45,034 nucleotides of DNA. Origin: Ureibacillus massiliensis 4400831 = CIP 108448 = CCUG 49529 (GTDB lineage: Bacteria; Bacillota; Bacilli; Bacillales_A; Planococcaceae). Within the stretch, counting starts at the first letter, position 1; each line of letters opens with the position of its first letter. The stretch covers positions 1 to 45,034 of the forward strand of contig NZ_JPVQ01000028.1 of NCBI RefSeq assembly GCF_000772965.1. The letters run 5' to 3'. A program made the translations under genes and the position numbers. Below, one piece after another: positions 6,776-23,282 of the stretch. The notes under the pieces are model-generated. The model saw only the letters and a program-made list of their open reading frames with translations. It was not told the origin of the DNA and ran no database searches.

Positions 6776-6787
6776 GAGGGAATGTAT

Positions 6788-7573: not shown

Positions 7574-7579
7574 TTGAAG

Positions 7580-8287: not shown

Positions 8288-8288
8288 A

Positions 8289-8336: not shown

Positions 8337-8597
8337 GGTTGCTGGTTTATAGATAGTTATCGAGCTTAAAGGTTATAAAACTAATAACATATTGTTCATT
8401 AATGAATATTGAATTGTATTAATTGTTAACTTTTATCATATATAAAAGTATTTGAACTAAATGATATACTTAGTCATTAAAATATTATTAAAAACTAACA
8501 AGAGAATGATAGAAATCAATCCTAATAAAATACCTCAAACTATAAAGAAGAAAATACAGATGCTCAATAAGAAAGGTAATTTAAAGGGGAGTATAAA

Positions 8598-9907: not shown

Positions 9908-11521
9908 TTACTTTGCAATGATATATGGCTCACTATTTTCAAATCTTACTTCCCAAAGCTTTAAACAAAATTGTAATAAGAAGATATCATCTGGGTCACT
10001 TAAAGAGCGATTGGTTAATGCCTCTATTTTTCTTAAACGATATAAAAGTGATTGTCGATGAAGTGATAAAGCTCTGGCAGTTTGGCTTACATTCCCTTGG
10101 TGATAAATATAAGAAGATAATGTTCTTAAAAGATCGAGTCCGTTGTTTTTATCATAGGAAGCAATAGAACCAATCGTTGAATGCATTAATTCTGTTGAAA
10201 ATGTGTTATTTTGTAAGGAAATAAGCAATTGGTAAATGCCTGTACTTGCAAATGTACTTCGAGAACCTGTACCTTTATGACTTCTACCAACTTCAAGTGC
10301 TGTTCTTGCATTTTTATAACTATAGTGAAATGTCATAACTCCTGCATGATTTTCACCAATCCCCCAAGAAATAACAGGTATCTTCTTTTCTTCAACATAA
10401 CAATTTAATAAATCTAAAAAGTCATTTACTTCATGGTTTACTTTTTCTAAACTGCATTCTAGAAATATCACAATTACTTCACGATGAAATGTTAGAATGA
10501 TTTGCTTATTCACTTTATTTTTTAATTCGTTAATGATCATCGTAAACTCATGTTTAAATTCCTTTTCGATCGCTGCGGTATTCTTTTTCTGCGAGGAGTA
10601 ATATTCATCTAATTTTTCAGGCTGACCAACAATACAAACATAAGGTACATCAACAATAAACCCCAGTTTTTTTCCCTCATCGATGAATTTTTCTTTATTT
10701 ATCCAATTGCCATTCGTTAAGTCCTTTAAATAATCATCAATTTCCTTTTGTTTATTATCAGCTAGTGTAATTTCTTTTTGAATCCATAAAGTTAATATCG
10801 TCACCACTTGATTTAAAACGAGCCATGGAATAGGTTGTGCGTTTAGTTTTTTTGATTTTAATAGTAAAAAGTAAGTATCTTTCCCTGATAATTTAATAGG
10901 AACAATTTGAGTAAAAGTACCATTTTCATGACGAATAATAGTGGGTTCTTCTGTATCTAAATCTATCTGTCCTAATAGATTTGGTTCTGTACAATCACGT
11001 TCTCGTTTTAGTTCAACATTCATTTGAAAGTCCTTTGATAAATATTTAAGAACATAGTCAACGGATTCGTGATCTAAAAAAAGCTTTAGTAACTCACGCT
11101 GAATGGAGTCTGCCTTTAAAAGGGAAGTTTGTTCCCATTTATTTATTTGCTCCAATACGGTCTTTAAAATTTCGGAAAATCGTAATTCCCATGGAAGTTC
11201 AATAAGAGGAAAATGGTGATTATTACAAAACTCAATAATTTCTTCGGGGACGTATTGAACATGTCTTCCTACAGCAATTCCCATTGCGGCAGCTCCAGAT
11301 TCGAAAACCTCTCTTACATACGAAAGAAATAGCTCTGTATTATTTCCACATCCAATAGCAGTAGTTAAAACGAATTCGTTTTTTCCTACGAAGTTTTCGA
11401 CAGGGATTTCCATTACAGATACTGATTTAATAATTTGAGAACTGATAATCTTTTCACCTGATAGAAGTTTTGCAGATTGTAATAATGGAATTGCTAGCAC
11501 GTTTTTAACAGTAAATTGCAT
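9908..11521 (-). CDS. PucR-family transcriptional regulator
   Basis: Transcription factor of 537 aa, the usual length for PucR proteins. The N-terminal PucR sensor domain covers about residues 5-125 (VLAIPLLQSAKLLSGE through FPLIELPWE). A degenerate middle domain follows. The C-terminal helix-turn-helix (residues about 460-525) contains the family signature NVSQTARALSLHRQSLLYRLRKIE. B. subtilis PucR controls purine catabolism and PutR relatives control proline use. Here the gene lies 48 bp downstream of eutB on the same strand, next to the ectoine operon, so its inducer is probably an ectoine breakdown product. Start ATG has AAGGGGTG upstream. A TnrA box before eutB would also place this gene under nitrogen control, as is known for B. 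subtilis pucR. Confidence 0.85.
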   Translation of the reverse strand: MQFTVKNVLAIPLLQSAKLLSGEKIISSQIIKSVSVMEIPVENFVGKNEFVLTTAIGCGNNTELFLSYVREVFESGAAAMGIAVGRHVQYVPEEIIEFCNNHHFPLIELPWELRFSEILKTVLEQINKWEQTSLLKADSIQRELLKLFLDHESVDYVLKYLSKDFQMNVELKRERDCTEPNLLGQIDLDTEEPTIIRHENGTFTQIVPIKLSGKDTYFLLLKSKKLNAQPIPWLVLNQVVTILTLWIQKEITLADNKQKEIDDYLKDLTNGNWINKEKFIDEGKKLGFIVDVPYVCIVGQPEKLDEYYSSQKKNTAAIEKEFKHEFTMIINELKNKVNKQIILTFHREVIVIFLECSLEKVNHEVNDFLDLLNCYVEEKKIPVISWGIGENHAGVMTFHYSYKNARTALEVGRSHKGTGSRSTFASTGIYQLLISLQNNTFSTELMHSTIGSIASYDKNNGLDLLRTLSSYIYHQGNVSQTARALSLHRQSLLYRLRKIEALTNRSLSDPDDIFLLQFCLKLWEVRFENSEPYIIAK

Positions 11522-11569
11522 GTTATTTCACCCCTTAAAATAGAAGAAAATCTATTAAATTCTCTATAT

Positions 11570-12577
11570 TTATATATATGCTTTTATTGCATTAAGATGA
11601 GAAGTAAGATCGACATTATTTCCGCTTATGATCACTACGTTTTTCGTATTTTCTTTTAATGAAATAATGTTATCGATTATTGCTCCAATTCCCACTGCTG
11701 CAGCGCCTTCTACGACAATTTTATGTTCTTTATATAAATAAGCCATTCCTTTTTTTATGGTTTCTTCGTTTACTAATACCGATTGATCAACATATTGGTT
11801 TACCATACTAAATGTATATTTATTTTCGTCACCAATGCCTCCTAGTAAACTATCAGCTAGTGTTTCATGTTCCGAAACTACTACAGGTTTTCCTGCTTTA
11901 AGACTTTCGTACATTGCAGCACCCTTTTCCATGCTGACACCAAACACTTGGATAGAAGGATTAGTATTTTTCATAACTAAACCTACTCCTGAAAGAAGTC
12001 CTCCACCTGAAAGTCCACCAATCACACTATGAACTGAGGGTAAGTCTTCTAATATTTCTAGCGCAATTGTACCCTGTCCCGAAATAACAGAAGGGTGATC
12101 AAAGGGTGGGATGAGGGTTAGACCTTGCTCTTTTTGTAGTTCATAGCAACGTTGTTCAGCATCATCTTGTCCATCGCCGTAGATTTCTAATTCCGCACCT
12201 AAGCCCTTAATTTTTTCAAATTTCGCCTGTGGTACGTGTTTTGATACACAAATGACCGCTCGTATACCGAGTTTTTTTGCAGCAAGAGCTACTGCAAATC
12301 CATGATTTCCTGTTGAGAAGGTAGTAACACCATGTTTCTTTTGCTCTTCCGTTAATTGATAAATGGCATTTACGGCCCCCCGCATTTTAAATGCTCCGCT
12401 ATCATGAATATGTTCATATTTTAAATAAATTTCAGCTCCTGCTTTTTCTGATAGAGCTTTTGAATAGATTAGAGGAGTTTTGTGAATGATCGCTGAAATT
12501 GTACTTTTTGCTTTCCATACATCTTGTAAAGTAATCGTTTGATTATGAACCTGTTGCACACTTGGAATTTGAACCAC
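11570..12577 (-). CDS. eutB: EutB-like PLP-dependent dehydratase for hydroxyectoine use
   Basis: PLP-dependent fold-type II enzyme of 335 aa related to threonine dehydratase. The Schiff-base lysine lies in DSGAFKMRGAVNA (about residue 64), followed by TFSTGNHGFAVA, and the phosphate-binding glycine loop is GGLSGGGLLSG. There is no ACT regulatory domain. Next to doeA, eutC and ehu genes the best assignment is EutB, proposed to remove the 3-hydroxyl of the hydroxyectoine-derived diamino acid. Alternatives are a threonine/serine dehydratase or racemase. The start is GTG with AAGGGGC about 10 bp upstream. It is divergent from doeA and appears co-transcribed with the pucR-family gene. Confidence 0.78.
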   Translation of the reverse strand: MVQIPSVQQVHNQTITLQDVWKAKSTISAIIHKTPLIYSKALSEKAGAEIYLKYEHIHDSGAFKMRGAVNAIYQLTEEQKKHGVTTFSTGNHGFAVALAAKKLGIRAVICVSKHVPQAKFEKIKGLGAELEIYGDGQDDAEQRCYELQKEQGLTLIPPFDHPSVISGQGTIALEILEDLPSVHSVIGGLSGGGLLSGVGLVMKNTNPSIQVFGVSMEKGAAMYESLKAGKPVVVSEHETLADSLLGGIGDENKYTFSMVNQYVDQSVLVNEETIKKGMAYLYKEHKIVVEGAAAVGIGAIIDNIISLKENTKNVVIISGNNVDLTSHLNAIKAYI

Positions 12578-12607
12578 TTAGATTTTGCCCCTTTCATTCT
12601 TAAATTG

Positions 12608-12624
12608 TGTAATTTATTCTAACA
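12608..12624. promoter_or_regulatory. TnrA box upstream of eutB
   Basis: TGTAATTTATTCTAACA is a perfect TGTNA-N7-TNACA match, centred 39 bp before the eutB start codon. That is closer than the usual activating distance of about 50 bp to a transcription start, so it could act as an overlapping operator instead of a classical activator site. Confidence 0.62.
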
Positions 12625-12636
12625 CAAATTCTATTC

Positions 12637-12651
12637 AATATTTAGAATATT
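12637..12651. promoter_or_regulatory. Weak CodY-like site in the eutB/doeA gap
   Basis: AATATTTAGAATATT matches the CodY consensus at 12 of 15 positions. In a very AT-rich gap this could be chance. Confidence 0.25.
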
Positions 12652-12716
12652 TTAAGATTTGATTATCTTATTTATCAATTTTTAAAATTGTCTAATAATT
12701 TCATACAAATTGACAG

Positions 12717-12747
12717 ATTGTTTAGAGTACTTATCAGACAATATAAT
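12717..12747 (+). promoter_or_regulatory. doeA promoter with candidate PucR-type operator
   Basis: A TATAAT hexamer (12742-12747) lies 18 bp after a weak TTGTTT. Overlapping it is an interrupted inverted repeat, ATTGTTTAG at 12717-12725 and TCAGACAAT at 12734-12742. A further ATTGTCTAA copy lies at 12687-12695. Three ATTGTYTRR half-sites around the promoter suggest the binding site of the pathway regulator. The repeats are seen; the assignment is inference. Confidence 0.45.
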
Positions 12748-12751
12748 ACTT

Positions 12752-12768
12752 TGTAACTAATCATAACA
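12752..12768. promoter_or_regulatory. TnrA box upstream of doeA
   Basis: TGTAACTAATCATAACA is a perfect TGTNA-N7-TNACA match. It begins 4 bp after the putative -10 hexamer, about 40-55 bp before the doeA start. At this position TnrA would more likely repress than activate from that promoter, unless another start is used. Confidence 0.65.
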
Positions 12769-12805
12769 ATTGTTAGTGATTATTCATAACAAGGGAGGTA
12801 AGTAT

Positions 12806-13993
12806 ATGGAGATTTTTGAGTTATCTGAGTATAAAGAACGATTGAGAAAAACGAAAGAAAAAATGCAAGAAAAAGGACTAGATATATTACTTGTCACAGA
12901 CCCTGCGAATATGAATTATTTAACTGGCTATGATGGATGGTCATTTTACGTTCATCAATGTTTAATCGTGCTTCTAGATGAAGAAGAACCATTTTGGATT
13001 GGTCGTAATCAAGATGCAAATGGCGCAAAGGTAACAACTTACCTAGGAGAAAATCATATTATCCCATACCCAGATATTTATGTTCAATCAACTGAAAGAC
13101 ACCCAATGGACTTTGTTTGCGACATCTTAAAAGAATTAGGCCAAACAAATGGAACAGTCGGTTTAGAAATGGATACTTACTACTTTACTGCAAAATGTTT
13201 TACTCAGTTACAGCTTGGATTGCCACAAAGTACCTTTGTAGATGCAACTTCTCTTGTAAATTACGTTCGCATTATTAAATCTGATAAAGAAATTGAATAT
13301 ATAAGAAGAGCTGCAAGAATCGTAGAAAATGCAATGCAAACTGGTATTGATGCAATCGAAGAAGGTGTAAGAGAATGTGACGTTGTGGCAAAAATTATGC
13401 ATGCCCAAATTAGCGGGACAGTTGAATTTGGTGGTGACTATCCTGCAATTATGCCTTTACTACCATCAGGTGAAAGAACATCAACACCTCATCTAACATG
13501 GACAGATGAAAAATATAAATCCGGTATACCTGTCATTTTAGAATTAGCAGGATGCTATCACCGCTACCATTCTCCATTATCTCGAACAGTATTTATTGGA
13601 GAACCAGATCCAAAAATTAAATATTTAGCAGATGTTGTGATTGAAGGTCTTAACGAAACATTGAGCTCTGTTAAACCGGGGATTACTTGTGAAGAAGTAG
13701 AAGCGGTATGGAGAAAAAGTATTGCAAAAAGTGGATTTGAAAAGGAATCTCGTATCGGTTACTCAATGGGCTTAAACTATCCTCCAGATTGGGGCGAACA
13801 CACTGCAAGCTTACGTCCCGGAGATAAAACAGTTTTACAACCAAATATGACATTCCATTGTATTCCTGGTATTTGGCTTGATGAATATGGTGTAGAACTA
13901 AGTGAATCCTTCCGAGTAACGGAAACGGGGATAGAAGTATTTGCAAACTTCCCACGACAACTATTTGTTAAAAATTCTACAAAAATCTATTAA
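12806..13993 (+). CDS. doeA: Ectoine hydrolase DoeA (EutD), M24/creatinase-like
   Basis: Ring-opening hydrolase of 395 aa that converts ectoine to N-acetyl-diaminobutyrate, the first step of ectoine catabolism. The assignment rests on stretches typical of DoeA: TGYDGWSFYVHQ (residues 40-51), VQSTERHPMD (93-102), GGDYPAIMPLLPSG (209-222) and SLRPGD. It has the creatinase N-domain plus a pita-bread C-domain, but the usual M24 metal-binding aspartates are replaced in LELAGCYHRYHSPLSRT (245-261), as in metal-free creatinase. Start ATG 12806 has GGGAGG 8 bp upstream; earlier in-frame starts overlap the TnrA box region. It is the first gene of a ten-gene plus-strand operon. Confidence 0.9.
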   Translation: MEIFELSEYKERLRKTKEKMQEKGLDILLVTDPANMNYLTGYDGWSFYVHQCLIVLLDEEEPFWIGRNQDANGAKVTTYLGENHIIPYPDIYVQSTERHPMDFVCDILKELGQTNGTVGLEMDTYYFTAKCFTQLQLGLPQSTFVDATSLVNYVRIIKSDKEIEYIRRAARIVENAMQTGIDAIEEGVRECDVVAKIMHAQISGTVEFGGDYPAIMPLLPSGERTSTPHLTWTDEKYKSGIPVILELAGCYHRYHSPLSRTVFIGEPDPKIKYLADVVIEGLNETLSSVKPGITCEEVEAVWRKSIAKSGFEKESRIGYSMGLNYPPDWGEHTASLRPGDKTVLQPNMTFHCIPGIWLDEYGVELSESFRVTETGIEVFANFPRQLFVKNSTKIY

Positions 13994-14007
13994 AGCGGTG
14001 AAATACT

Positions 14008-14970
14008 ATGAAAATATTTCATGAAAATGAAATAAGAGAATTTGTAAAAGTAAATCCAACAGCTATTGAAATAGTAGAGGAAGGATTTACCGCACTGGCA
14101 AAAGGCATTGTAACACTACCGCCGATTATGAGAATCGACATCCCTGAGCATAATGGAGAAATCGATGTTAAAACGGCGTATATAAAAGGTTTAGATACCT
14201 TTGCAATAAAAATATCATCCGGTTTCTTTAATAACTCATTAATAGGATTACCTAGCTTAAGCGGTATGATGATTTTATTTCAAACGAAAACTGGTTTAAC
14301 AGAAAGTATTTTGCTAGATAACGGCTATTTAACTGATGTTAGGACTGCAGCTGCAGGGGCAATTGCTTCCAAATATTTAGCAAAATCAAAGGTTGATCGA
14401 GTTGGAGTAATTGGTACAGGAACACAGGCTCGTTACCAAATTGAAGCCTTATCCCATGTAAGAGATTTTAAACAGTTAACTGTTTACGGTAGAAATGAAG
14501 AATCGGCAAAAAAATATGCTCTTGAAATGGAATCAACATTAGGGGTAAAAGTTGTAATCGCAAAAAATGTAGAAGAATTAGTGAAAGAAAGCGAAATTGT
14601 TGTCACAACAACCCCTTCTATAACCCCTTTAATTAAGGCGGATTGGCTCCACCCAGGCTTACATATTACAGCGATGGGATCAGATGCAGAGCATAAGCAG
14701 GAGCTAGAACCCCTAATCTTTGAGAAGGCAGATATCATCGCATGTGATGTTAAATCACAATGTTTTAGATTAGGCGAATTACATCACGCTCTTGAAAGCC
14801 AAATCATTACTCAACATAACGAAAACATATTGGAAATTGGCGAAATAATTTCCGGTATAAAAACAGGGCGGATAGATGAAAGGCAAATAACAATATGTGA
14901 CTTAACAGGCACAGGTGTTCAAGATACAGTGATTGCAAGGTTTGCTTACAATCAATTAATAAACAAATAA
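14008..14970 (+). CDS. eutC: EutC-like ornithine cyclodeaminase/ketimine reductase family protein
   Basis: NAD(P)-dependent enzyme of 320 aa from the ornithine cyclodeaminase/mu-crystallin family. Visible features are the substrate-side lysine in FAIKISSGF (K68), YLTDVRTAAAGA (107-118), and the Rossmann loop GVIGTGTQAR (133-142). In ectoine gene clusters the member of this family is EutC, thought to act with EutB on the hydroxyectoine-derived branch, plausibly as a ketimine reductase restoring diaminobutyrate. It begins 14 bp after doeA. Its exact reaction is not established. Confidence 0.82.
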   Translation: MKIFHENEIREFVKVNPTAIEIVEEGFTALAKGIVTLPPIMRIDIPEHNGEIDVKTAYIKGLDTFAIKISSGFFNNSLIGLPSLSGMMILFQTKTGLTESILLDNGYLTDVRTAAAGAIASKYLAKSKVDRVGVIGTGTQARYQIEALSHVRDFKQLTVYGRNEESAKKYALEMESTLGVKVVIAKNVEELVKESEIVVTTTPSITPLIKADWLHPGLHITAMGSDAEHKQELEPLIFEKADIIACDVKSQCFRLGELHHALESQIITQHNENILEIGEIISGIKTGRIDERQITICDLTGTGVQDTVIARFAYNQLINK

Positions 14971-14995
14971 CTTCAAGTAAAGCGGAGGTATAGAC

Positions 14996-16204
14996 ATGAA
15001 AGAAGAAAAAGTTAATGTAGGTACACAAGCAGTTTGGGCAGGAGAAAAGGAAGTGCTAGTACATGGTGCATCACAAGTACCTGTCATAGTAAGTGTAGCT
15101 TATTCCTATGACGATATGGACGAATGGTATGACGTGGCGGTTGGTAAAAAGCAAGGCCATATTTATGGCAGAAATACAAACCCAACAGTGCAAGCTTTTG
15201 AGAATAAAGTAAAAGCACTTGAAGGGGCAGAAGCAGCCACAAGTTTTTCAACAGGAATGGCTGCCATCAGCAATACACTTTACACATTTTTACAGCCTGG
15301 AGATAGAATTGTTTCTATTAAAGATACTTACGGTGGAACGAATAAAATCTTCATTGAATTTCTGCCAAAAATGGGGATAGAGGTAGCCCTTTGTGAAACA
15401 GGAAATCATGAAGCAATTGCGAAAGAAATTGAAAAAGGTTGTAAAATTCTATATTTAGAAACCCCTACTAACCCAACGGTAAAGATTACTGATATTGAAT
15501 TGATGGCGAAAAAAGGGAAGGAAGTTGGAGCGCTTGTCGTTGTTGATAATACATTTGCAACCCCAATCAACCAAAATCCATTAGCATTAGGTGCAGATCT
15601 TGTTTTACACAGCGCTACGAAATTCCTTGGTGGCCATGCTGATGCTTTAGGTGGTGTTGTTTGTGGATCGAAGGAGTTAGTTGAACAAATTTACCACTAC
15701 CGCGAAATCAATGGAGCAACACTTGATCCTTGGGCAGCTTATCTTTTATTAAGAGGTATGAAAACTTTAAAGTTACGTGTTAGACAACAAGAAAAAAATG
15801 CACTAGCTATTGCAAAATTTTTAGAGCAGCAAGAATTAGTGGAAGGCGTTTATTATCCAGGTTTAGAATCCCATGTTAACCATGACATTGCGAAAAAACA
15901 AATGAGAGGCTTTGGTGGTATGTTAAGTTTCTCTTTAAAGGGTGGCATGGATGCTGTGAGAATTTTATTGCCACAATTGAAATATGCAAATCGCGCGGCG
16001 AACTTAGGGGCAGTTGAAACAACTTATGGTCCAGCTAGAACAACGAGCCATGTAGAAAGTACCCCTGAGGAAAGAGCGGCAATGGGAATTCCTGAAGGTT
16101 TAGTTCGACTTTCAGCAGGTATTGAAGATACTGAGGATCTTATCCAAGATCTTGAACAAGCATTTGCCATTTTAAAAGATAGTGCAGTAGCAATCGGCGA
16201 GTAA
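14996..16204 (+). CDS. Cystathionine gamma-synthase/methionine gamma-lyase-like PLP enzyme
   Basis: PLP fold-type I trans-sulfuration family enzyme of 402 aa. The Schiff-base lysine is K209 in HSATKFLGGHADALGG, D184 in VVVDNTFATP holds the pyridine nitrogen, and IYGRNTNPT (56-64) supplies the phosphate-binding Tyr/Arg of the neighbouring subunit. The family eliminates or replaces gamma substituents on homoserine or cysteine derivatives. No sulfur genes are nearby. Placed between eutC and an amidohydrolase, it probably acts on a C4 amino acid from ectoine, such as diaminobutyrate or homoserine, giving 2-oxobutyrate. That role is inference. It has an excellent GCGGAGG site and lies 25 bp after eutC. 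Confidence 0.85.
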   Translation: MKEEKVNVGTQAVWAGEKEVLVHGASQVPVIVSVAYSYDDMDEWYDVAVGKKQGHIYGRNTNPTVQAFENKVKALEGAEAATSFSTGMAAISNTLYTFLQPGDRIVSIKDTYGGTNKIFIEFLPKMGIEVALCETGNHEAIAKEIEKGCKILYLETPTNPTVKITDIELMAKKGKEVGALVVVDNTFATPINQNPLALGADLVLHSATKFLGGHADALGGVVCGSKELVEQIYHYREINGATLDPWAAYLLLRGMKTLKLRVRQQEKNALAIAKFLEQQELVEGVYYPGLESHVNHDIAKKQMRGFGGMLSFSLKGGMDAVRILLPQLKYANRAANLGAVETTYGPARTTSHVESTPEERAAMGIPEGLVRLSAGIEDTEDLIQDLEQAFAILKDSAVAIGE

Positions 16205-16216
16205 GAAGGTGTGCAT

Positions 16217-17458
16217 ATGGAAATAGACATCCTTTCACGAGTAAATCAGTTGTCTGAACAATTAGTTCTATGGAGAAGACAGCTTCATGAAAACCCTGAA
16301 CTAAGTTTTGAAGAATATGAGACTTCTAACTTTGTTTATGAGCAGTTATCAAAAATTGAAGGTATGAAGGTTGAGAAAGGAATCGGTGTAGAGACAGCTG
16401 TAATCGGAACATTAACGCGAGGAATTGGTCCAACAGTAGCTATCCGAGCTGATATAGATGCATTACCTATCGTCGAACAAACAACCCATTCCTTTCGTTC
16501 AAGAAATAATGGCGTCATGCATGCTTGTGGGCATGACGCTCACACTTCCATTGGAATAGCTGTAGCAACTCTAATGGGTGAGCTATTTGTTAAAACTACT
16601 ATTCAAGGCACTGTGAAATTCATCTTTCAACCTGCTGAGGAAAATACAGATGCAAATGGTAAAACGGGATCACCTTATTTAATTGAAGCAGGTGTACTAA
16701 AAGATATTGATGCAATTGTAGCTCTTCATATGAATCCGGAGCGCGAGGTAGGAACAGTTTTCATCCATGATGGATATAGTATGGCGAATGTTGATGTATT
16801 TCAAGCGACGATACATGGTTCAGGTGGCCATGGTGCATACCCACATTTAGGTACAGATCCAATTTGGATGCTAGGTCCTGTATTGCAAGCTCTTCATGGA
16901 ATCGTAGCTCGAAATATTTCACCACTTGATGCGGCGGTTATTAGTGTTGGTGAAGTAAAGGGTGGTTCAGCTAGTAATATCATACCAACTGAAGTGTTTT
17001 TACAAGGTACAATGCGCAGCTACACACCGACTGTTCGAAGTAGTTTAGAACAAAAATTAGATAAGGCATTTTCAATTGTTGAAGCATTTGGAGGGACATA
17101 TGAGTTAAAAATCACTCATGGTGAGCCGGCATTATATAATCATCCAGAAGTAAATGCGGTGCTGAAAAATACAACTCAAGAATTATACCCCTTGATGAAA
17201 ATTGAAGAAGTTCCATTTGGTTTAGGTGGGGAAGATTTCTCTCATATGACTTATGAAGCACCTGGTTCTATGATTTTCCTAGGATGTGCCTATCCAGATG
17301 GTGTAAAACGGGATTTACATACACCAATATTCGATATTGATGAACGGTGTTTACCAATTGGCGCAGCCATTTTGACGCAAACATTATTAAATTATCTATT
17401 AGGAAATGCCAAGTTACCAGAAAAACGATTTAAAAAAGAAAACTTATTCGCTTCATGA
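16217..17458 (+). CDS. M20-family amidohydrolase, candidate N-acetyl-diaminobutyrate deacetylase
   Basis: Zinc-dependent M20D amidohydrolase of 413 aa (hippurate hydrolase/N-acetyl amino acid deacetylase group). Metal-binding residues are seen in HACGHDAH (residues 102-109), PAEE (139-142) and LGGEDFSHM. A typical dimerisation domain has SGGHGAYPH. In the pathway, N-acetyl-diaminobutyrate must be deacetylated; known DoeB/EutE enzymes belong instead to the AstE/aspartoacylase family, so this would be a non-orthologous replacement. Start ATG 16217 is chosen over GTG 16211, which overlaps the AGAAGGTG ribosome-binding site. It lies 12 bp after the previous gene. Confidence 0.85.
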   Translation: MEIDILSRVNQLSEQLVLWRRQLHENPELSFEEYETSNFVYEQLSKIEGMKVEKGIGVETAVIGTLTRGIGPTVAIRADIDALPIVEQTTHSFRSRNNGVMHACGHDAHTSIGIAVATLMGELFVKTTIQGTVKFIFQPAEENTDANGKTGSPYLIEAGVLKDIDAIVALHMNPEREVGTVFIHDGYSMANVDVFQATIHGSGGHGAYPHLGTDPIWMLGPVLQALHGIVARNISPLDAAVISVGEVKGGSASNIIPTEVFLQGTMRSYTPTVRSSLEQKLDKAFSIVEAFGGTYELKITHGEPALYNHPEVNAVLKNTTQELYPLMKIEEVPFGLGGEDFSHMTYEAPGSMIFLGCAYPDGVKRDLHTPIFDIDERCLPIGAAILTQTLLNYLLGNAKLPEKRFKKENLFAS

Positions 17459-17472
17459 TTGGAGGAGTATAT

Positions 17473-18513
17473 TTGGAACACCGAGTGGCATTATTAGGTT
17501 TTGGAGTTGTAGGCCAAGGTTTTGCGGAAATCGTATTAAACAAAAAACAACAATTAGAAAATGAGTATGGTTTAAATATTTCCATTGTAGCAGTAAGTGA
17601 TTTAATGAAAGGCTCCGTTTATCATCCAGAAGGTCTTTCTGTTGAGGATTTATTGAAAGTCATTAAAGAAACAGGATCATTTGATGCATATCCGGATTAT
17701 CCAGGTCTTATTAGAGGATTGGATAGCTTTGAAACTATTGCAAATACAAATGCAGAAACGATTGTTGAAGTAACATTTACTGATGTTCAAACTGGTCAAC
17801 CAGCAATTGATCATTGTAAACACGCCTTTAACCATGGGAAAAATGTCATTATGAGTAATAAAGGTCCTGTTGCATTGGCATTTCAGGAACTGAATACCCT
17901 TGCGCAACAAAATAAAGTACGTTGGGGCTATGAAGGCTCAGTAATGAGTGGAACACCTGCTTTAAGGATGGCAACAACATCATTAGCAGGTAATGATATA
18001 ACCGAGATTCAAGGGATATTCAATGGTACGACGAATTATATGCTGACACGTATGGAAGAGGGTCTTTCTTATGAAGAAGCGTTAAAAGAAGCTCAACAAC
18101 TAGGCTATGCTGAAGCAAATCCAACAAATGATGTTGAAGGCTATGATGCGTTATATAAAATTGTCATTCTTTCAAATGTTTTACTAAATTATCCTATAAA
18201 AATGGATGCGGTAGAACGAGTGGGAATCTCTCGCTTAACAAATAAGGATATCGAGCAGGCAAAAAATGAAGGTAAAAGATGGAAGCTAATTGCTCGGTTA
18301 ATGAAAACGTCAGACGGTATTTCCGCTTCTGTTAAACCAGAAATGATAGCTTTAAATCATCCGCTAGCAAGTATTAACGGTGCTACAAATGCAATTTCTT
18401 ATCATTGTGATTTATTAGGACCAGTTACGTTAATAGGGGCGGGTGCAGGTAAATCTGAAACAGGTTTTTCGATTTTGATTGATTTAATTAATATTCATCG
18501 TAGACAACTTTAG
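17473..18513 (+). CDS. Homoserine dehydrogenase-like NAD(P)-dependent oxidoreductase
   Basis: Oxidoreductase of 346 aa with an N-terminal Rossmann fold (LLGFGVVGQG, residues 7-16) and a homoserine dehydrogenase catalytic domain including SNKGPVAL, GTTNYMLTRM and NPTNDVEGYDALYK. It lacks the C-terminal ACT domain of many biosynthetic homoserine dehydrogenases, so threonine feedback is unlikely. In this operon it would interconvert aspartate 4-semialdehyde and homoserine, or a related hydroxy acid. The TTG start at 17473 is set by GGAGGAG at 17461-17467; the upstream in-frame ATG 17455 overlaps the end of the previous gene and has no ribosome-binding site. Confidence 0.84.
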   Translation: MEHRVALLGFGVVGQGFAEIVLNKKQQLENEYGLNISIVAVSDLMKGSVYHPEGLSVEDLLKVIKETGSFDAYPDYPGLIRGLDSFETIANTNAETIVEVTFTDVQTGQPAIDHCKHAFNHGKNVIMSNKGPVALAFQELNTLAQQNKVRWGYEGSVMSGTPALRMATTSLAGNDITEIQGIFNGTTNYMLTRMEEGLSYEEALKEAQQLGYAEANPTNDVEGYDALYKIVILSNVLLNYPIKMDAVERVGISRLTNKDIEQAKNEGKRWKLIARLMKTSDGISASVKPEMIALNHPLASINGATNAISYHCDLLGPVTLIGAGAGKSETGFSILIDLINIHRRQL

Positions 18514-18534
18514 ATGCAAGAAAGGAGAGAATTA

Positions 18535-19977
18535 ATGGAACAAACACTCCTAAGTAAAAAGATGTTGTTAGCTGGTGAATGGGTATGGCGGGAAAGTATG
18601 ATTGAAGTTGAAAATCCACAAAACGGTGAGATTATCGCAAAGGTTCCCGCCGCGAGCAAAGATGATGCCTTAATTGCAATTGAAGAAGGCGTCATTGGTG
18701 CAAAAATTGCTAGTAATCTCTCAACTTACGAACGGATGACGATATTAAATAATGCTGCAAACTGGATTGAAGAACGAAAGAATGTGTTTGCAGAAACGAT
18801 TGCATTAGAAAGTAGTAAGACGATTCGAGAAGCTCAAAAAGAAGTGAAACGATGTATTCAAACCATTCGCTTAAGTGCGGAAGAGGCAAGGCGTATTAAG
18901 GGTGAAACGATTCCTTTTGACCAAATGGAGGGCAACGAAAATAGAGTCGGTTATTATGAACGATTACCTGTTGGTTTAATCGTTGCAATTACACCCTTTA
19001 ACGACCCTCTTAATTTAGTAGCTCATAAACTAGGTCCGGCCATTGCTGCAGGAAATGCAATTATTATAAAGCCTGCTACCGTTACACCATTAAGTGCACT
19101 TTTATTAGCAGAAGCATTTGAGCATGCGGGATTACCAAAAAAAATCCTTTCTGTTTTAACTGGCTATTCAAGTGAGATTGGAAATGTACTTGTGACAAGT
19201 TCATCGGTAAGAATGATTTCTTTTACTGGTGGAAATAAAGCTGGCAATGATATTGCTTCAAAAGCTGGAGTGAAAAAGCTAAGTATGGAGCTTGGATCAA
19301 ATTCCCCTTGTATTGTATTGAAAGATGCTGATTTGAAGGAAGCTGTTGATTCCATTGTTTCAGGAGCCTTTTGGGCTGCCGGACAAAATTGTTTAGGAGT
19401 CCAACGGGTTTATATAGAAAATGATATTTATGAAGAATTTGAAAATGCGATTGTTTATCGGACGAATCAGTATAAGGTTGGCGATAAAATGAGTGAACTA
19501 ACAGATATGGGACCACTTATAACAGAAAAAGAAGCTATCCGTGTAGAAAAACTAGTGAATGAAGCTATTGCTGAAGGTGCAATTTGTCTTTGTGGTGGTC
19601 AACGAAAAGGCGCTTACTATTATCCGACTATACTGACAAACGTCGACCCTGAAAATAAGATATCGAAAGAGGAACTATTTGGACCAGTAGTCATTTTAGA
19701 TAGAGTAGAAGATTTAAATGAAGCAATTGAAAAATCTAACAATGTTCAATACGGATTGCATGCAGGAATATTTACTAAAAATATTGACTTAGCCTTTAAA
19801 GCTATTAAACAGATGGAATACTCAGGTGTAATGGTAAACGATAGTAGTGATTTTAGAATCGATTCTATGCCATTTGGAGGAATTAAAGGATCTGGAATTG
19901 GTAGAGAAGGCGTTTCCTTTTCAATTGAAGAAATGACTGAGCTGAAAGTAGTGTGCTTTAAAATAGGTAAAACCTAA
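18535..19977 (+). CDS. NAD(P)-dependent aldehyde dehydrogenase, DoeC-like
   Basis: Aldehyde dehydrogenase of 480 aa. The general-base glutamate is E252 in SMELGSNSP and the catalytic cysteine is C286 in AAGQNCLGVQ. The oxyanion asparagine lies in TPFNDPLN (153-160). In context the substrate is most likely aspartate 4-semialdehyde, yielding aspartate, as for DoeC; succinate semialdehyde or another semialdehyde is possible. ATG 18535 is preceded by AAAGGAGAG at ideal distance; an in-frame ATG seven codons earlier lacks one. It follows the dehydrogenase gene by 21 bp. Confidence 0.84.
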   Translation: MEQTLLSKKMLLAGEWVWRESMIEVENPQNGEIIAKVPAASKDDALIAIEEGVIGAKIASNLSTYERMTILNNAANWIEERKNVFAETIALESSKTIREAQKEVKRCIQTIRLSAEEARRIKGETIPFDQMEGNENRVGYYERLPVGLIVAITPFNDPLNLVAHKLGPAIAAGNAIIIKPATVTPLSALLLAEAFEHAGLPKKILSVLTGYSSEIGNVLVTSSSVRMISFTGGNKAGNDIASKAGVKKLSMELGSNSPCIVLKDADLKEAVDSIVSGAFWAAGQNCLGVQRVYIENDIYEEFENAIVYRTNQYKVGDKMSELTDMGPLITEKEAIRVEKLVNEAIAEGAICLCGGQRKGAYYYPTILTNVDPENKISKEELFGPVVILDRVEDLNEAIEKSNNVQYGLHAGIFTKNIDLAFKAIKQMEYSGVMVNDSSDFRIDSMPFGGIKGSGIGREGVSFSIEEMTELKVVCFKIGKT

Positions 19978-20030
19978 TAACCGCTATTTAATGACATTTT
20001 AAATAGAATTTTATTTGGAGGAGGGTTTTT

Positions 20031-20951
20031 ATGAAAAAACACGTATTAATGCTATTAACTACATTAGTCATCCTTGTATTAGCTGCCTGTGGAGGACCTG
20101 GTGAATCTAGTGAACCAGCAGAGGAAAATGATTCTTCTGAAACTACAACAGCAAGTGAACCATCAAAATTAGAGAAACTACAAGAAGCTGGAACAGTCAA
20201 AATTGGTTTTGCCAATGAGGTACCATATGCATATGAAGAAAATGGTGAATTAAAGGGAGCTAATGTTGACATTGCAAAAGCTGTTTTTAAAGAATTAGGC
20301 ATTGAAAATGTGGAAGCACAATTAGCTGATTTTGGTCAATTAATCCCAGGTGTGCAAGCAGGACAATTCGATGTTATTACTGCAGGTATGGCCATCAATC
20401 CTGATCGCTGTGAGAGAGTATTATTTAGTGAACCAGAAATGAAATATGGTGAGGGTTTAATCGTTCAAACCGGAAACCCACAAAATATCCAAAGTTATAA
20501 AGATATCGCTGCAAATCCAGAATTAAAAGTTGTTGTAATGGAAGGGACAACGGAAATTGGCTTTTTACAAGAAGAAGGTGTAAGTCCTGATCAAATTATT
20601 ACAGCTCCAGATATCCCTGCTACATTCTCTGCTGTTCAAGCAGGGCGTGCTCATGCTACAACAGGAACTGAAATGACTGTAAAAATGGCGTTAGTTTCTG
20701 CAGGAACGGATGCGTTAGAGTTTGTTGAAACATTTGAACAACCAGATGTTGAAGGCGTACCAAGCTATGGTGCTGCAGCCTTTAATCTTGAAGATCAAGA
20801 ATTACGTGATGCATATAATGAAAAATTACAAGAACTGAAAGAGAATGGCACGATAGCAGAACTACTAGAAGCAAATGGCTTTAGTGAAATTAGTAATATG
20901 GTAGAAGTAGGAGAGATTACAACTGAACAAGCTTGTGCAGGTCAGAGTTAA
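20031..20951 (+). CDS. ehuB: Ectoine/hydroxyectoine ABC transporter substrate-binding lipoprotein EhuB
   Basis: Binding lipoprotein of 306 aa, bacterial extracellular solute-binding family 3. The lipobox is LAAC with lipidated C20, followed by an acidic Ser/Glu linker. The mature part starts LQEAGTVKIGFANEVPYAYEE and contains FDVITAGMAINPDRCERVLFSEP; both are characteristic of EhuB more than of general polar amino acid binders. It has a very strong GGAGGAGGG site and lies 53 bp after the aldehyde dehydrogenase gene. A terminator-like hairpin separates it from the permease genes. Confidence 0.88.
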   Translation: MKKHVLMLLTTLVILVLAACGGPGESSEPAEENDSSETTTASEPSKLEKLQEAGTVKIGFANEVPYAYEENGELKGANVDIAKAVFKELGIENVEAQLADFGQLIPGVQAGQFDVITAGMAINPDRCERVLFSEPEMKYGEGLIVQTGNPQNIQSYKDIAANPELKVVVMEGTTEIGFLQEEGVSPDQIITAPDIPATFSAVQAGRAHATTGTEMTVKMALVSAGTDALEFVETFEQPDVEGVPSYGAAAFNLEDQELRDAYNEKLQELKENGTIAELLEANGFSEISNMVEVGEITTEQACAGQS

Positions 20952-20985
20952 TTCTACTATTTGTAAAATGATTGATTGCTAGATT

Positions 20986-21028
20986 AATAGGGACAAGCTT
21001 CTTTCATAATAAGCTGTCCCTATTTTTT
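20986..21028 (+). terminator. Attenuating terminator between ehuB and ehuC
   Basis: A stem of about 13 bp with one bulged A (20987-21000 with 21011-21023) ends in six T. As in the liv operon, it would let the binding protein exceed the permease in amount. Confidence 0.82.
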
Positions 21029-21069
21029 CATAAGATATTAATTGATGAGAGAGAAGGGAATGATCTAAT

Positions 21070-21729
21070 ATTAGCACTTTAATTGACATATTTCCTCAGC
21101 TCATGAGAGGTCTTGGTATAACCGTTTCGGTATTAGTTGTTTCTGCATTAATTGCATATTTTATGGCTTTTATAGCAGGATTGTCTAAACTATCAAAAAA
21201 TAAAGTAATAACCGGTATTACAGGTGTATATGTTGAAGTTTTCCGTGGCACATCATTAATAGTTCAGCTCTTTTGGCTATATTACGCTATACCAATGTTA
21301 TTCGGAATTCAACTAGGGTCAAATTGGTGGACAGGAGTTATTGCCATCGGGCTAAACTATGGCGCCTATTTATCTGAGGTTGTAAGAAGCTCCGTTTTAG
21401 CTGTGGATAAAGGACAGACGGAAGCTGGTATTGCCTTAAACATGTCCTCCTTTCAAAGAATGCGGTACATCATATTACCACAAGCTGTTCGCATGATGCT
21501 ACCGGAGTTCGGAAATTATACAATTCAAATGATGAAAGCGACGTCACTTGTATCTTTAATTGGTATGAGAGACATTTTATACTACGGAGATATTATGAGA
21601 AGTACAAATTTATCACAAGCACCACTTATTTATGTTGCGGTATTAATTATGTATTTCGTTCTAGCGCTTCCGTTGATTTGGTTAACTAGAAAAGGAGAAA
21701 GTATTGCTAAGAGAGGGGTGGCAAGCTGA
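21070..21729 (+). CDS. ehuC: Ectoine/hydroxyectoine ABC transporter permease EhuC
   Basis: Polar amino acid-type permease, 219 aa if begun at ATT 21070 and 208 aa if begun at ATG 21103. It has an RGTSLIVQLFWLYYAIP segment and the coupling loop EAGIALNMSSFQRMRYIILPQAVR. No ATG, GTG or TTG exists in frame between the stop codon at 21061 and ATG 21103. ATG 21103 has no ribosome-binding site and would drop the ISTLIDIFPQL segment that family members have before the first helix. AAGGGA lies about 10 bp before ATT 21070, so a rare AUU start is likely. Its stop overlaps the ehuD start (TGATG). Confidence 0.82.
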   Translation: MSTLIDIFPQLMRGLGITVSVLVVSALIAYFMAFIAGLSKLSKNKVITGITGVYVEVFRGTSLIVQLFWLYYAIPMLFGIQLGSNWWTGVIAIGLNYGAYLSEVVRSSVLAVDKGQTEAGIALNMSSFQRMRYIILPQAVRMMLPEFGNYTIQMMKATSLVSLIGMRDILYYGDIMRSTNLSQAPLIYVAVLIMYFVLALPLIWLTRKGESIAKRGVAS

Positions 21730-22451
21730 TGAATAATTGGAAATGGGAAACCTTTTTTGAAGCATTACCAATTGTATTAAAGGGACTAGGTATTACAGTA
21801 GGTTTAACATTTGCCTGCTTTGCATTTGCTTTAATCTTTGGATTTGTATGGGTTATTCTTCGAAGTGTACCAAGTAAATACTTTACTTGGATTGTTACTT
21901 GGATTATGGAATTTATCAGATCAACCCCTCTTTTAGTTCAGTTATTCTTTATCTTTTATGCATTACCTGTATTGCCTGTCGTAGGTGTGACATTAGAGCC
22001 ATTTACTTGCGCGGTATTAGGAATTGGAATCCATTATAGTACGTATATAGGTGAGATTTATCGTGCAGGTATTGAAAGTGTAGATAAAGGACAATGGGAA
22101 GCTTCAGTAGCGTTGAACTTTTCTACATTAGATAAATGGAAAAAAATTATTTTACCACAAGCAATTCCCCCAACTATACCGATGCTAGGAAATTATTTCA
22201 TTATTATGTTCAAAGAAGTTCCGATTGCATCGACAATCAGCGTAGGTGGAATTTTATACATGGCTAATTCCTATGGTGCTTTGAATTTTGCTTATTTAGA
22301 ACCATTAACAATTGTAGGAATTATTTTCTTAACACTTAGTTATCCATCCTCAATACTTATTAAAAAACTTGAAGTAAAGATGAATACAAGATTTGATAAA
22401 AATGCTTTATTAAAGAAAGCGAGAAAGAAAAATTTGAAGGTATCCATTTAG
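21729..22451 (+). CDS. ehuD: Ectoine/hydroxyectoine ABC transporter permease EhuD
   Basis: Second permease of 240 aa from the HisM/GlnP family. Features are the RSTPLLVQLFFIFYALP segment (residues 59-75) and the coupling loop EASVALNFSTLDKWKKIILPQAIPP. It has about five membrane segments and a basic cytoplasmic tail. Its ATG overlaps the ehuC stop by one base, indicating translational coupling and a heteromeric EhuC-EhuD channel. Confidence 0.88.
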   Translation: MNNWKWETFFEALPIVLKGLGITVGLTFACFAFALIFGFVWVILRSVPSKYFTWIVTWIMEFIRSTPLLVQLFFIFYALPVLPVVGVTLEPFTCAVLGIGIHYSTYIGEIYRAGIESVDKGQWEASVALNFSTLDKWKKIILPQAIPPTIPMLGNYFIIMFKEVPIASTISVGGILYMANSYGALNFAYLEPLTIVGIIFLTLSYPSSILIKKLEVKMNTRFDKNALLKKARKKNLKVSI

Positions 22452-22466
22452 AGGGGGGACATTCTA

Positions 22467-23282
22467 TTGGTTAAAAACTTAACTTTAAAAACGAAAGAAG
22501 AGCTGAAAAACAGTGAGGCTATTGTAAAATATCGGGATGTAACAAAATCCTTTGGAGATGTACATGTTTTAAAGGGGATTAATCTTGATATCCACTCAGG
22601 AGAAAAAATAGCAGTGATTGGTCCGAGTGGATCTGGAAAAACTACTATTATTCGAATGTTAATGACCTTGGAAGAACCGACGTCAGGCGATATTTTTGTT
22701 GCGGATAAAAACCTATGGAAGATGGAAAAGAAGGGTGAACTAGTCCGAGCAAATGAAAAACATTTAAGAGAGGTACGAGGGGATATCGGAATGGTATTTC
22801 AGCATTTTAATCTATTTCCCCATATGACAATTTTAGATAATTGTATGGCAGCACCAATTCATGTGAAAAATGAAAATAAGGAAGAAGTTCGAGAAAGATC
22901 TATTCAGATGCTTGAAAGAGTAGGGTTAGGTGATAAACTAAATAATTATCCTTCTCAGCTATCAGGCGGTCAAAAACAGCGAGTTGCAATGGCACGGGCA
23001 TTGGTTATGCGTCCTAAAATCATGTTGTTTGATGAAGTCACTTCTGCCTTAGATCCAGAACTAGTTGGAGAAGTATTAGAAGTAATTCGTGATATTGCTC
23101 GCAATGAGGATATGGCAATGGTACTCGTCACGCATGAAATGGATTTTGCTTTAAATGTGGCAGATAGAGTACTATTTCTAGATCAAGGGGTTATCGCAGA
23201 ACAGGGAACAGCATCTGAAGTATTAGAACATTCTAAAAATGAACGTCTTCAATCGTTCTTACGTAGATTTAGAAAAGCATAG
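22467..23282 (+). CDS. ehuA: Ectoine/hydroxyectoine ABC transporter ATPase EhuA
   Basis: ABC ATPase of 271 aa from the polar amino acid group. The Walker A is GPSGSGKTTIIRMLM, the Q-loop has GMVFQHFNLFPHMT, the signature is LSGGQKQRVAMARAL and the Walker B is IMLFDEVTSALDPE. An insertion of about 20 residues before the Q-loop (KNLWKMEKKGELVRANEKHLREVRGD) is typical of EhuA. The start is TTG with GAGGGGGG about 9 bp upstream. It is the last gene of the operon, ended by the terminator at 23341. Confidence 0.9.
   Translation: MVKNLTLKTKEELKNSEAIVKYRDVTKSFGDVHVLKGINLDIHSGEKIAVIGPSGSGKTTIIRMLMTLEEPTSGDIFVADKNLWKMEKKGELVRANEKHLREVRGDIGMVFQHFNLFPHMTILDNCMAAPIHVKNENKEEVRERSIQMLERVGLGDKLNNYPSQLSGGQKQRVAMARALVMRPKIMLFDEVTSALDPELVGEVLEVIRDIARNEDMAMVLVTHEMDFALNVADRVLFLDQGVIAEQGTASEVLEHSKNERLQSFLRRFRKA

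What the first reader, a model, noticed from the sequence alone, without database searches (positions are those of the whole stretch)
9908..23282. Ectoine/hydroxyectoine island with a non-standard enzyme set in a Firmicute
The sequence shows DoeA, EutB and EutC homologues next to an EhuABCD-type transporter, which points to ectoines as substrate. The typical proteobacterial partners are not seen: no EutA racemase-like gene, no DoeD aminotransferase, no AstE-type DoeB and no EnuR. Instead the same operon encodes an M20 amidohydrolase, a cystathionine gamma-synthase-like enzyme and a homoserine dehydrogenase. This implies a variant route from diaminobutyrate to central metabolism.
Basis: partly seen in the sequence, partly recalled or inferred. 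Interest (0 to 1): 0.78.

Follow-up and report, generated by a model that had tools for sequence, protein, structure and literature searches.

The report
Ectoine breakdown by a homoserine detour
A Bacillales bacterium carries a gene set for eating the salt-protectant ectoine in which one usual enzyme seems to be replaced by two others that would pass the molecule through the amino acid homoserine; the gene set itself was already reported as putative, and the route proposed here still has to be tested.

Summary
The cluster recurs in Bacillales and was reported in April 2026 as putative ectoine catabolism (PMC13188858), its CGS position apparently labelled 'atf'. What I add is a route. M20 stands where DoeB stands. 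CGS plus HSD stand in for the DABA aminotransferase DoeD: in 93 doeA loci of relatives HSD never occurs without CGS (74 both, 12 CGS only, 0 HSD only, 7 neither); of the 7, 5 have a class III aminotransferase in the cluster, 1 has one nearby. Three enterobacterial plasmids read carry Ehu genes, a MocR gene and doeA-doeB-CGS. CGS-superfamily enzyme, HSD, ALDH and aspartase also form the canavanine gamma-lyase trunk. Best reading: CGS turns diaminobutyrate into homoserine; HSD makes aspartate semialdehyde, ALDH aspartate. No biochemistry. Against: 12 of 86 doeA+CGS loci lack a linked HSD; 15 of 18 DoeA genomes in a Bacillota-wide sample lack CGS; the own genome has one 35%-identical, PucR-flanked aminotransferase that could act instead. 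New variant of a known kind.

The parts
9908..11521 (-). PucR-family regulator (N-terminal PucR domain, GGDEF-like, C-terminal HTH_30)
   Evidence: Pfam PF07905, PF17853, PF13556; a pucR match lies in 62 of 80 named CGS loci
11570..12577 (-). EutB-like PLP dehydratase (hydroxyectoine branch)
   Evidence: NF005680 432.6 bits, cut-off 413; TIGR02991 379 vs 413
12685..12721 (.). Conserved element in the eutB-doeA intergenic region, candidate regulator site or promoter
   Evidence: Dense invariant columns in an alignment of the window with 7 relatives
12806..13993 (+). DoeA/EutD-like ectoine hydrolase (ring opening to N-alpha-acetyl-DABA)
   Evidence: TIGR02993 531 bits, below cut-off 613; solved ectoine hydrolase 6twk at E 1.8e-119; start chosen behind GGGAGG
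14008..14970 (+). EutC-like reductase (hydroxyectoine branch)
   Evidence: NF006141 470 bits vs 408; TIGR02992 420 vs 472
14996..16204 (+). CGS-family PLP enzyme; proposed diaminobutyrate gamma-lyase giving homoserine
   Evidence: NF006097 753.7 bits vs 600; context and motif
16211..17458 (+). M20 amidohydrolase; proposed N-acetyl-DABA deacetylase in the role of DoeB
   Evidence: TIGR01891 368 bits vs 153.75; DoeB2 model only 229 vs 550; present in both CGS and aminotransferase versions of the cluster
17455..18513 (+). Homoserine dehydrogenase; proposed direction homoserine to aspartate semialdehyde
   Evidence: NF004912 456.9 bits vs 373; conserved E/D/D/K motif
18514..19977 (+). Aldehyde dehydrogenase, DoeC candidate (aspartate semialdehyde to aspartate)
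   Evidence: PF00171 515.7 bits; 48-50% identical to the ALDHs of three rhizobial plasmid clusters
20031..20951 (+). EhuB, ectoine/hydroxyectoine-binding protein
   Evidence: TIGR02995 260 bits vs 190.9; 2q88/2q89 the only PDB sequence at E<=1e-30
21103..21729 (+). EhuC permease
   Evidence: TIGR03004 184 bits vs 197
21729..22451 (+). EhuD permease
   Evidence: TIGR03003 230.7 vs 205.2
22467..23282 (+). EhuA ATPase
   Evidence: TIGR03005 355.8 vs 345.4

Best explanation
An ectoine/hydroxyectoine uptake and catabolism operon. EhuABCD imports ectoines; DoeA opens the ring to N-alpha-acetyl-DABA; the M20 enzyme deacetylates it to L-2,4-diaminobutyrate (DABA); for hydroxyectoine EutB and EutC remove the hydroxyl. 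Then, instead of transaminating DABA (DoeD), the CGS-family PLP enzyme removes the gamma-amino group as ammonia and adds water, giving homoserine; HSD oxidises homoserine to aspartate semialdehyde and the ALDH oxidises that to aspartate. Shown here: gene content, recurrence, the swap of CGS+HSD with a class III aminotransferase, and conservation of motifs. Inferred: every enzyme activity, that the swapped-in aminotransferase acts on DABA, and above all the DABA-to-homoserine step.
For: CGS tracks DoeA: in 201 relatives the 22 genomes with NF006097 (E<=1e-150) all lie among the 27 with DoeA (E<=1e-100). Swap: of 93 doeA loci (window not counted) 86 have CGS; of the 7 without, 5 have doeA-M20-ALDH followed, directly or after a BCCT transporter gene, by a class III aminotransferase and no HSD; 1 (G082) has such a gene 7.7 kb beyond the ALDH; 1 is an orphan doeA. 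By genome, 5 of 5 CGS-less DoeA genomes hold that aminotransferase (E<=1e-80) against 5 of 22 with CGS, two of which (G020, G024) carry a second doeA-M20-ALDH-aminotransferase locus. CGS and HSD over the 93 loci: 74 both, 12 CGS only, 0 HSD only, 7 neither (Fisher p 5e-6, ignoring phylogeny). Gram-negative case: three of 28 listed enterobacterial plasmid records read; each has Ehu genes and doeA-doeB-CGS (60-61% identical CGS) with a MocR-type gene (GntR plus aminotransferase domains, tested in one) and no doeD annotated in the stretch. Same trunk: Mesorhizobium amorphae has B3/4 gene, ABC transporter, CGS-superfamily enzyme (36%), HSD (47%), ALDH (49%), dapA, aspartase; PMC10018355 passages say canavanine gamma-lyase gives homoserine and hydroxyguanidine and that a B3/4 gene stands in front of that operon. 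CGS copies in doeA loci share HIY[GS]RN[TS]NPT at the PLP site in 85 of 88 (the other 3 are second family members in the same loci), the plasmid one included; 5 of 6 loci with CGS, HSD and one family of amino acid permease but no doeA have YNRM instead. HSD motif kept in 81 of 81 linked HSDs.
Against: No biochemistry. No call documents ammonia as a gamma leaving group in this family. 12 of 86 doeA+CGS loci, the plasmid one included, have no linked HSD, so CGS could give 2-oxobutyrate instead. In a Bacillota-wide sample of 398 genomes 18 have DoeA and only 3 CGS (one is the own genome; in the other two CGS and doeA are on different contigs; at most four candidates per genome were scored). 11 of 104 loci have CGS but no doeA in the stretch. 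The own genome has a PRK06062-type aminotransferase, 35% identical to the doeA-linked one and beside a PucR gene, which could be an unlinked DoeD. G098, G100 and G130 have CGS and also a 50-58% relative of the aminotransferase, away from the doeA locus. The doeA-linked aminotransferase passes none of the model cut-offs listed.
Confidence: 0.6

Rival explanations
1. The CGS-family enzyme is a DABA lyase of the methionine-gamma-lyase kind: it turns DABA into 2-oxobutyrate and ammonia. The HSD is a side branch or has another substrate.
For: Best PDB matches are methionine gamma-lyases; the enterobacterial plasmid locus and 11 further doeA+CGS loci have no linked HSD.
Against: HSD is linked in 74 of 86 doeA+CGS loci and in 0 of 7 without CGS; TIGR01328 389 vs cut-off 549.7; the YGCT cysteine of the aligned methionine gamma-lyase is YGGT here.
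Confidence: 0.17
2. CGS and HSD serve the hydroxyectoine branch only, for example handling hydroxy-DABA or the EutB product, and DABA is transaminated by an unlinked aminotransferase such as the PRK06062-type one.
For: A second CGS copy in G079 sits with eutB and eutC without doeA; EutABC activities are called unknown in PMC8739950 (passages); the own genome has a PucR-flanked aminotransferase.
Against: 20 of 80 named loci have doeA, CGS, M20, HSD and ALDH without eutB or eutC in the stretch; G082 keeps eutB and eutC but lacks CGS and HSD and has the aminotransferase nearby; the plasmid clusters read have CGS without eutB or eutC in the stretch.
Confidence: 0.12
3. HSD runs toward homoserine: DABA is transaminated elsewhere, and homoserine made from aspartate semialdehyde feeds a sulfur-amino-acid reaction by the CGS enzyme.
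For: CGS-family enzymes usually act in methionine metabolism (general knowledge).
Against: Needs an aminotransferase, for which the own genome offers only a 35% relative of the doeA-linked one; free homoserine is not the usual CGS substrate (general knowledge); the operon also holds an ALDH that would compete for aspartate semialdehyde.
Confidence: 0.04
4. The cluster degrades another compound (canavanine or a relative) and the ectoine-like genes are paralogues.
For: DoeA, EhuC and some Eut models are below cut-off; HSD and ALDH resemble those of rhizobial homoserine/canavanine clusters.
Against: EhuA, EhuB and EhuD are above their cut-offs; DoeA matches the solved ectoine hydrolase at 1.8e-119; the plasmid cluster scanned pairs this CGS family with a DoeA over its cut-off (758 vs 613). 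A B3/4 gene was not searched for.
Confidence: 0.07

Closest known systems
Doe/Eut ectoine catabolism of Halomonas elongata and Ruegeria pomeroyi (DoeABCD; EutDE-Ssd-Atf, EutABC; passages of PMC5924519 and PMC8739950)
   Same: DoeA ring opening, a deacetylase, an aldehyde dehydrogenase candidate, EutB/EutC, an ectoine transporter.
   Different: M20 instead of AstE-type DoeB; PucR next door instead of EnuR; no linked DoeD but a CGS-family enzyme plus HSD; no linked EutA.
Putative Bacillota ectoine clusters of Boas Lichty et al. 2026 (PMC13188858)
   Same: By its description the same cluster: pucR-eutBCD-atf, then abgB-thrA-adh, with Ehu, BCCT or TRAP transport.
   Different: They label the fourth gene atf and say of thrA only what it encodes; 'cystathionine' does not occur in their text. 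Here that position is a CGS-family enzyme, and clusters with a true aminotransferase are separate. Their Fig. 7 was not seen, so that atf is the CGS gene is inferred from gene order.
Canavanine gamma-lyase pathway (Hauth et al. 2022, as cited in PMC10018355; original not held)
   Same: PLP gamma-lyase giving homoserine; HSD, ALDH and aspartase in the cluster that I take for its Mesorhizobium version.
   Different: The M. amorphae PLP enzyme is only 36% identical and below the NF006097 cut-off (289 vs 600); different substrate; here also DoeA and M20.
Methionine gamma-lyase
   Same: Same PLP family, best PDB match.
   Different: YGCT cysteine replaced by glycine; below the family cut-off.

Membership tests
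Ectoine catabolism (Doe/Eut) | Ectoine hydrolase DoeA/EutD | tested here: inconclusive
   TIGR02993 531 vs cut-off 613; 6twk E 1.8e-119
Ectoine catabolism (Doe/Eut) | Ectoine transporter | tested here: met
   EhuB 260 vs 190.9, EhuD 231 vs 205, EhuA 356 vs 345; EhuC just below (184 vs 197)
Ectoine catabolism (Doe/Eut) | AstE-type DoeB/EutE | tested here: not met
   PF04952: 0 matches in own genome
Ectoine catabolism (Doe/Eut) | DABA aminotransferase DoeD/Atf | tested here: inconclusive
   None linked; four of five own class III aminotransferases have other roles by model; the fifth (PRK06062-type) is 35% identical to the doeA-linked one of relatives
Ectoine catabolism (Doe/Eut) | Aspartate semialdehyde dehydrogenase DoeC/Ssd | tested here: inconclusive
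   ALDH family met; substrate not assignable from sequence
Ectoine catabolism (Doe/Eut) | EnuR regulator | not tested
   PucR is adjacent; the genome was not searched for EnuR
Ectoine catabolism (Doe/Eut) | Growth on ectoine, induction by ectoine | not testable with these tools
   -
DoeB2 (M20 N-acetyl-DABA deacetylase) | NF038260 score over cut-off | tested here: not met
   229 vs 550
PRK08249 CGS family (NF006097) | Score over curated cut-off | tested here: met
   753.7 vs 600
Methionine gamma-lyase | Family cut-off and active-site cysteine (role of the cysteine recalled) | tested here: not met
   TIGR01328 389 vs 549.7; YGGT where the aligned lyase has YGCT
Canavanine gamma-lyase pathway | Orthologous PLP enzyme | tested here: inconclusive
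   36% identity to the candidate enzyme of M. amorphae; no characterised enzyme sequence was at hand
Canavanine gamma-lyase pathway | HSD and ALDH of the same kind | tested here: met
   46-47% and 48-50% identity to three rhizobial cluster enzymes, against 34% for the own second HSD

The most novel reading that the evidence does not exclude
The CGS-family enzyme is a new PLP activity, a 2,4-diaminobutyrate gamma-lyase (hydrolase) that expels ammonia and yields homoserine, defining a homoserine route of ectoine catabolism found through much of the Bacillales and on enterobacterial plasmids; PRK08249 would be its family, marked by HIY[GS]RN[TS]NPT, with a permease-linked sister clade acting on another gamma-substituted amino acid.
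Probability: 0.56. Interest if true: 0.72.

Novelty: new variant of a known kind. Interest (0 to 1): 0.6.

Why it matters
Ectoine is a nutrient that bacteria scavenge in saline and soil environments, and PMC13188858 says that ectoine catabolism in Gram-positive bacteria still needs experimental confirmation. If right, a curated family without a named specific reaction (NF006097) gets one that a single enzyme assay can test, the 'atf' label of the published Bacillota clusters would be corrected, and ectoine and canavanine breakdown would share a homoserine-to-aspartate trunk. Gamma-elimination of ammonia would widen the chemistry of the CGS/methionine gamma-lyase superfamily.

Tried and rejected
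Canavanine as the operon's substrate: set aside because of DoeA, the Ehu genes and M20. Methionine gamma-lyase: set aside for this protein on cut-off and cysteine. M20 as a known DoeB2: the model is far below cut-off, so only the role, not membership, is claimed. Ectoine synthase in the own genome: no match, but the control was silent, so nothing is concluded. Lack of an ACT domain as a mark of a catabolic HSD: dropped, because the genome's second HSD frame is also short (328 aa). Literature: no paper held combines ectoine, cystathionine gamma-synthase and ectoine hydrolase, nor diaminobutyrate, ammonia-lyase, homoserine and cystathionine, nor diaminobutyrate, gamma-elimination, pyridoxal and homoserine; the library is open-access only and terms are literal, so this does not show that the idea is unpublished. 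E. coli genomes lack the enterobacterial doeA-doeB-CGS stretch at megablast sensitivity. No structure prediction was run. Row handling: six of 110 loci were dropped as duplicates of named ones (100% identical over 17-19 kb), leaving 104; L116 and L117 (99.7% identical, two species) were both kept; L023 counts as CGS-positive because tblastn found its CGS, which the ORF caller missed, so it stands as doeA+HSD without CGS.
Full report
What is there. The window (45,034 bases; contig C86 of a 4.0-Mb genome, 99.99% complete) holds at 9908-23282 a two-way gene cluster: pucR and eutB on the minus strand, and doeA, eutC, a CGS-family gene, an M20 amidohydrolase, a homoserine dehydrogenase (HSD), an aldehyde dehydrogenase (ALDH) and ehuBCDA on the plus strand. 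Spacing is tight: 14 bases between doeA and eutC, 25 to CGS, 6 to M20, a 4-base overlap M20/HSD, 0 to ALDH. doeA most likely starts at 12806, behind GGGAGG. The closest named CGS loci include Lysinibacillus and Ureibacillus, and three same-genus genomes (G003, G014, G024) are those very records (100% identical stretches), so the host belongs to that group (inference).

Family assignment. EhuA, EhuB and EhuD pass their ectoine-specific cut-offs, and EutB and EutC pass one model each, but DoeA (531 vs 613), EhuC (184 vs 197) and the TIGR models of EutB (379 vs 413) and EutC (420 vs 472) do not. The M20 protein is a generic amidohydrolase and matches the DoeB2 model only weakly (229 vs 550). The CGS-like protein is a clear member of NF006097/PRK08249 (754 vs 600), whose description names no specific reaction. 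PDB sequence searches put DoeA with the solved ectoine hydrolase (6twk, E 1.8e-119) and EhuB with 2q88/2q89 (Sinorhizobium EhuB by recall).

What is missing. Own genome: no AstE family; no EutA over cut-off, one distant homologue on another contig; EnuR not searched for. Five class III aminotransferases: four have other roles by model; the fifth is PRK06062-type (487 vs 472), 35% identical to the doeA-linked aminotransferase of relatives, and lies beside a PucR-type regulator and an iron-containing alcohol dehydrogenase. It is a weak candidate for an unlinked DoeD.

Comparative test. DoeA (TIGR02993, E<=1e-100) occurs in 27 of 201 relatives and NF006097 (E<=1e-150) in 22 of the same 201, all 22 among the 27. 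After dropping 6 duplicates, 104 loci remain, the window not among them; 93 contain doeA. Of these, 86 have CGS, 74 have CGS and HSD, and none has HSD without CGS. Of the 7 without CGS, five (L015, L016, L017, L033, L035) read doeA-M20-ALDH followed by a class III aminotransferase, directly (L033, L035) or after a BCCT transporter gene (tested in L015; the L016 and L017 genes are of its family). One (L037, G082) keeps eutB, doeA, eutC, M20, ALDH and ehuBCDA, lacks both CGS and HSD, and has a 65%-identical aminotransferase 7.7 kb beyond the ALDH with other genes between (L133). One (L039) is an orphan doeA. By genome, 5 of 5 CGS-less DoeA genomes have this aminotransferase at E<=1e-80 (G173 only a 51% relative, not linked) against 5 of 22 with CGS. 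Two of those five (G020, G024) carry both versions at two loci; in them the CGS locus has CGS and HSD but no M20 or ALDH, which the aminotransferase locus has. The simplest account is that CGS+HSD and the aminotransferase are alternatives for the same step, DABA to aspartate semialdehyde, while M20 and ALDH belong to both. That this aminotransferase acts on DABA is inferred; it passes none of the cut-offs listed.

Gram-negative case. Twenty-eight Klebsiella and Pluralibacter plasmid records listed have a CGS 60-61% identical to the window's. The three I read have ehuB and ehuC (ehuD and ehuA too in L042, ehuD in L136), a regulator of MocR build (GntR and aminotransferase domains; tested in L042) and doeA-doeB-CGS, with no doeD annotated in the stretch. 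An ALDH gene lies beyond an IS element, on the other strand beside a GMC oxidoreductase gene, in L136 only; its role was not tested. Here CGS directly follows the enzyme that makes DABA. These clusters do not tell homoserine from 2-oxobutyrate, since no HSD is linked.

Same trunk elsewhere. The window's HSD and ALDH are 46-47% and 48-50% identical to those of three rhizobial plasmid clusters. The Mesorhizobium amorphae one has a B3/4-domain gene, an ABC transporter, a CGS-superfamily PLP enzyme (36%), HSD, ALDH, dapA and aspartase. The R. acidisoli one has HSD, ALDH, an ABC transporter, a CGS-superfamily enzyme (41% over 350 residues) and aspartase, and no B3/4 gene annotated in the stretch. 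The R. leguminosarum CB782 one has HSD, ALDH, dapA, aspA and a homoserine kinase but no CGS-family match, so this HSD-ALDH pair is not tied to CGS enzymes alone. PMC10018355 (passages) says that canavanine gamma-lyase turns canavanine into homoserine and hydroxyguanidine and that a B3/4 gene stands in front of the operon; that M. amorphae carries this pathway is my inference. The original paper is not held; its statement that HSD, aspartate-semialdehyde dehydrogenase and aspartate lyase follow is recalled. Aspartase-like genes lie in 6 of the 104 loci (L037's supported by model, L124's by Pfam). Six loci carry CGS, HSD, ALDH and an amino acid permease of one family without doeA. In five of them a GntR-type gene stands upstream (domain tested in L092), the PLP-site motif is YNRM instead of Y[GS]RN, and CGS and HSD form clades (support 1.0 and 0.96) nested among the doeA-linked ones; the sixth (L054) has PucR and the ectoine-type motif. 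This fits the pair moving together to another gamma-substituted amino acid.

Residues. CGS copies in doeA loci carry HIY[GS]RN[TS]NPT in 85 of 88 cases; the other three are second family members in L062, L086 and L091. The four loci with CGS but neither doeA nor HSD, and L121, also carry it. The cysteine of the aligned methionine gamma-lyase (YGCT) is glycine. The HSD motif E-x-[DN]-x3-D-x4-D-x3-K is present in 81 of 81 linked HSDs and in the window's; that these include the catalytic residues of yeast HSD is recalled.

Mechanism proposed. Ectoine to N-alpha-acetyl-DABA (DoeA), to DABA and acetate (M20), to homoserine and ammonia (CGS: external aldimine, gamma-elimination of ammonium, addition of water to the resulting unsaturated PLP intermediate), to aspartate semialdehyde (HSD), to aspartate (ALDH). 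The standard route uses DoeD and DoeC after DABA (PMC5924519, passages). EutB and EutC would feed hydroxyectoine in; PMC8739950 (passages) reports DABA in cells grown on hydroxyectoine and calls the EutABC activities unknown. PMC10228743 (passages) describes a rhizobial DABA aminotransferase joining homoserine and DABA metabolism; the searched terms gamma-lyase and cystathionine do not occur in it. No step is shown biochemically here.

Results against. 12 of 86 doeA+CGS loci lack a linked HSD. 11 of 104 loci have CGS without doeA in the stretch: the five YNRM permease-linked ones, L054, L121 on a 6.7-kb contig that may cut doeA off, and L061, L111, L113 and L122 without HSD. In a Bacillota-wide sample of 398 genomes 18 have DoeA and 3 have CGS; all 3 have DoeA, but one is the own genome and in G354 and G556 the two are on different contigs (at most four candidates per genome were scored). 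Fisher p 5e-6 for CGS with HSD ignores phylogeny. The own PRK06062-type aminotransferase leaves a classical route open.

Prior work. PMC13188858 (April 2026; abstract, sections 8 and 9 and searched passages read, not the figures) reports putative Bacillota clusters pucR-eutBCD-atf with abgB-thrA-adh, labels the fourth gene atf, and says of thrA only what it encodes; 'cystathionine' does not occur in it. That their atf is the CGS gene is inferred from gene order. So the cluster is known as putative; its route was not found in the open-access papers held.

Noticed in passing
window 12685-12721: A strongly conserved stretch between eutB and doeA in the window and seven relatives; candidate PucR site or promoter.
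   Followed up: partly
L092, L102, L119, L123, L124: GntR-CGS-HSD-ALDH-permease modules (aspartase in L124) without doeA, with a different PLP-site motif (YNRM); substrate unknown.
   Followed up: partly
L042, L136, L137: Enterobacterial plasmids (Klebsiella, Pluralibacter) carry Ehu genes, a MocR-type gene and doeA-doeB-CGS.
   Followed up: yes
L128:281-4137: Own genome: PucR-type regulator, PRK06062-type class III aminotransferase and iron-containing alcohol dehydrogenase in a row on contig C1.
   Followed up: partly
L061:8178-16052: PucR-CGS followed by an amino acid permease, a glutamine-synthetase-family gene, an amidohydrolase and a peptidase C26 gene, resembling a gamma-glutamylation pathway.
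   Followed up: no
L023, L028, L036, L051, L055, L067: Second (or third) doeA-like copies in the same stretch; TRAP-type transporter genes (by eye) lie in L023, L036 and L051.
   Followed up: no
L041:5514-18861: The Bacillales cluster lies on a plasmid in Priestia megaterium DSM 32, with a pdxS gene inside it that may supply PLP for its PLP enzymes.
   Followed up: no
L134:4827-12797: G079 has a second CGS copy in a eutB-pucR-eutC-CGS-transporter-like cluster without doeA.
   Followed up: no
window 4484-9815: Branched-chain-amino-acid-type ABC transporter operon just upstream (named by eye); similar genes stand near the cluster in some relatives.
   Followed up: no
L138:3222-4004: Distant EutA homologue in the own genome next to TRAP-transporter-like and cyclase-like genes (named by eye), probably another racemase or isomerase.
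   Followed up: partly
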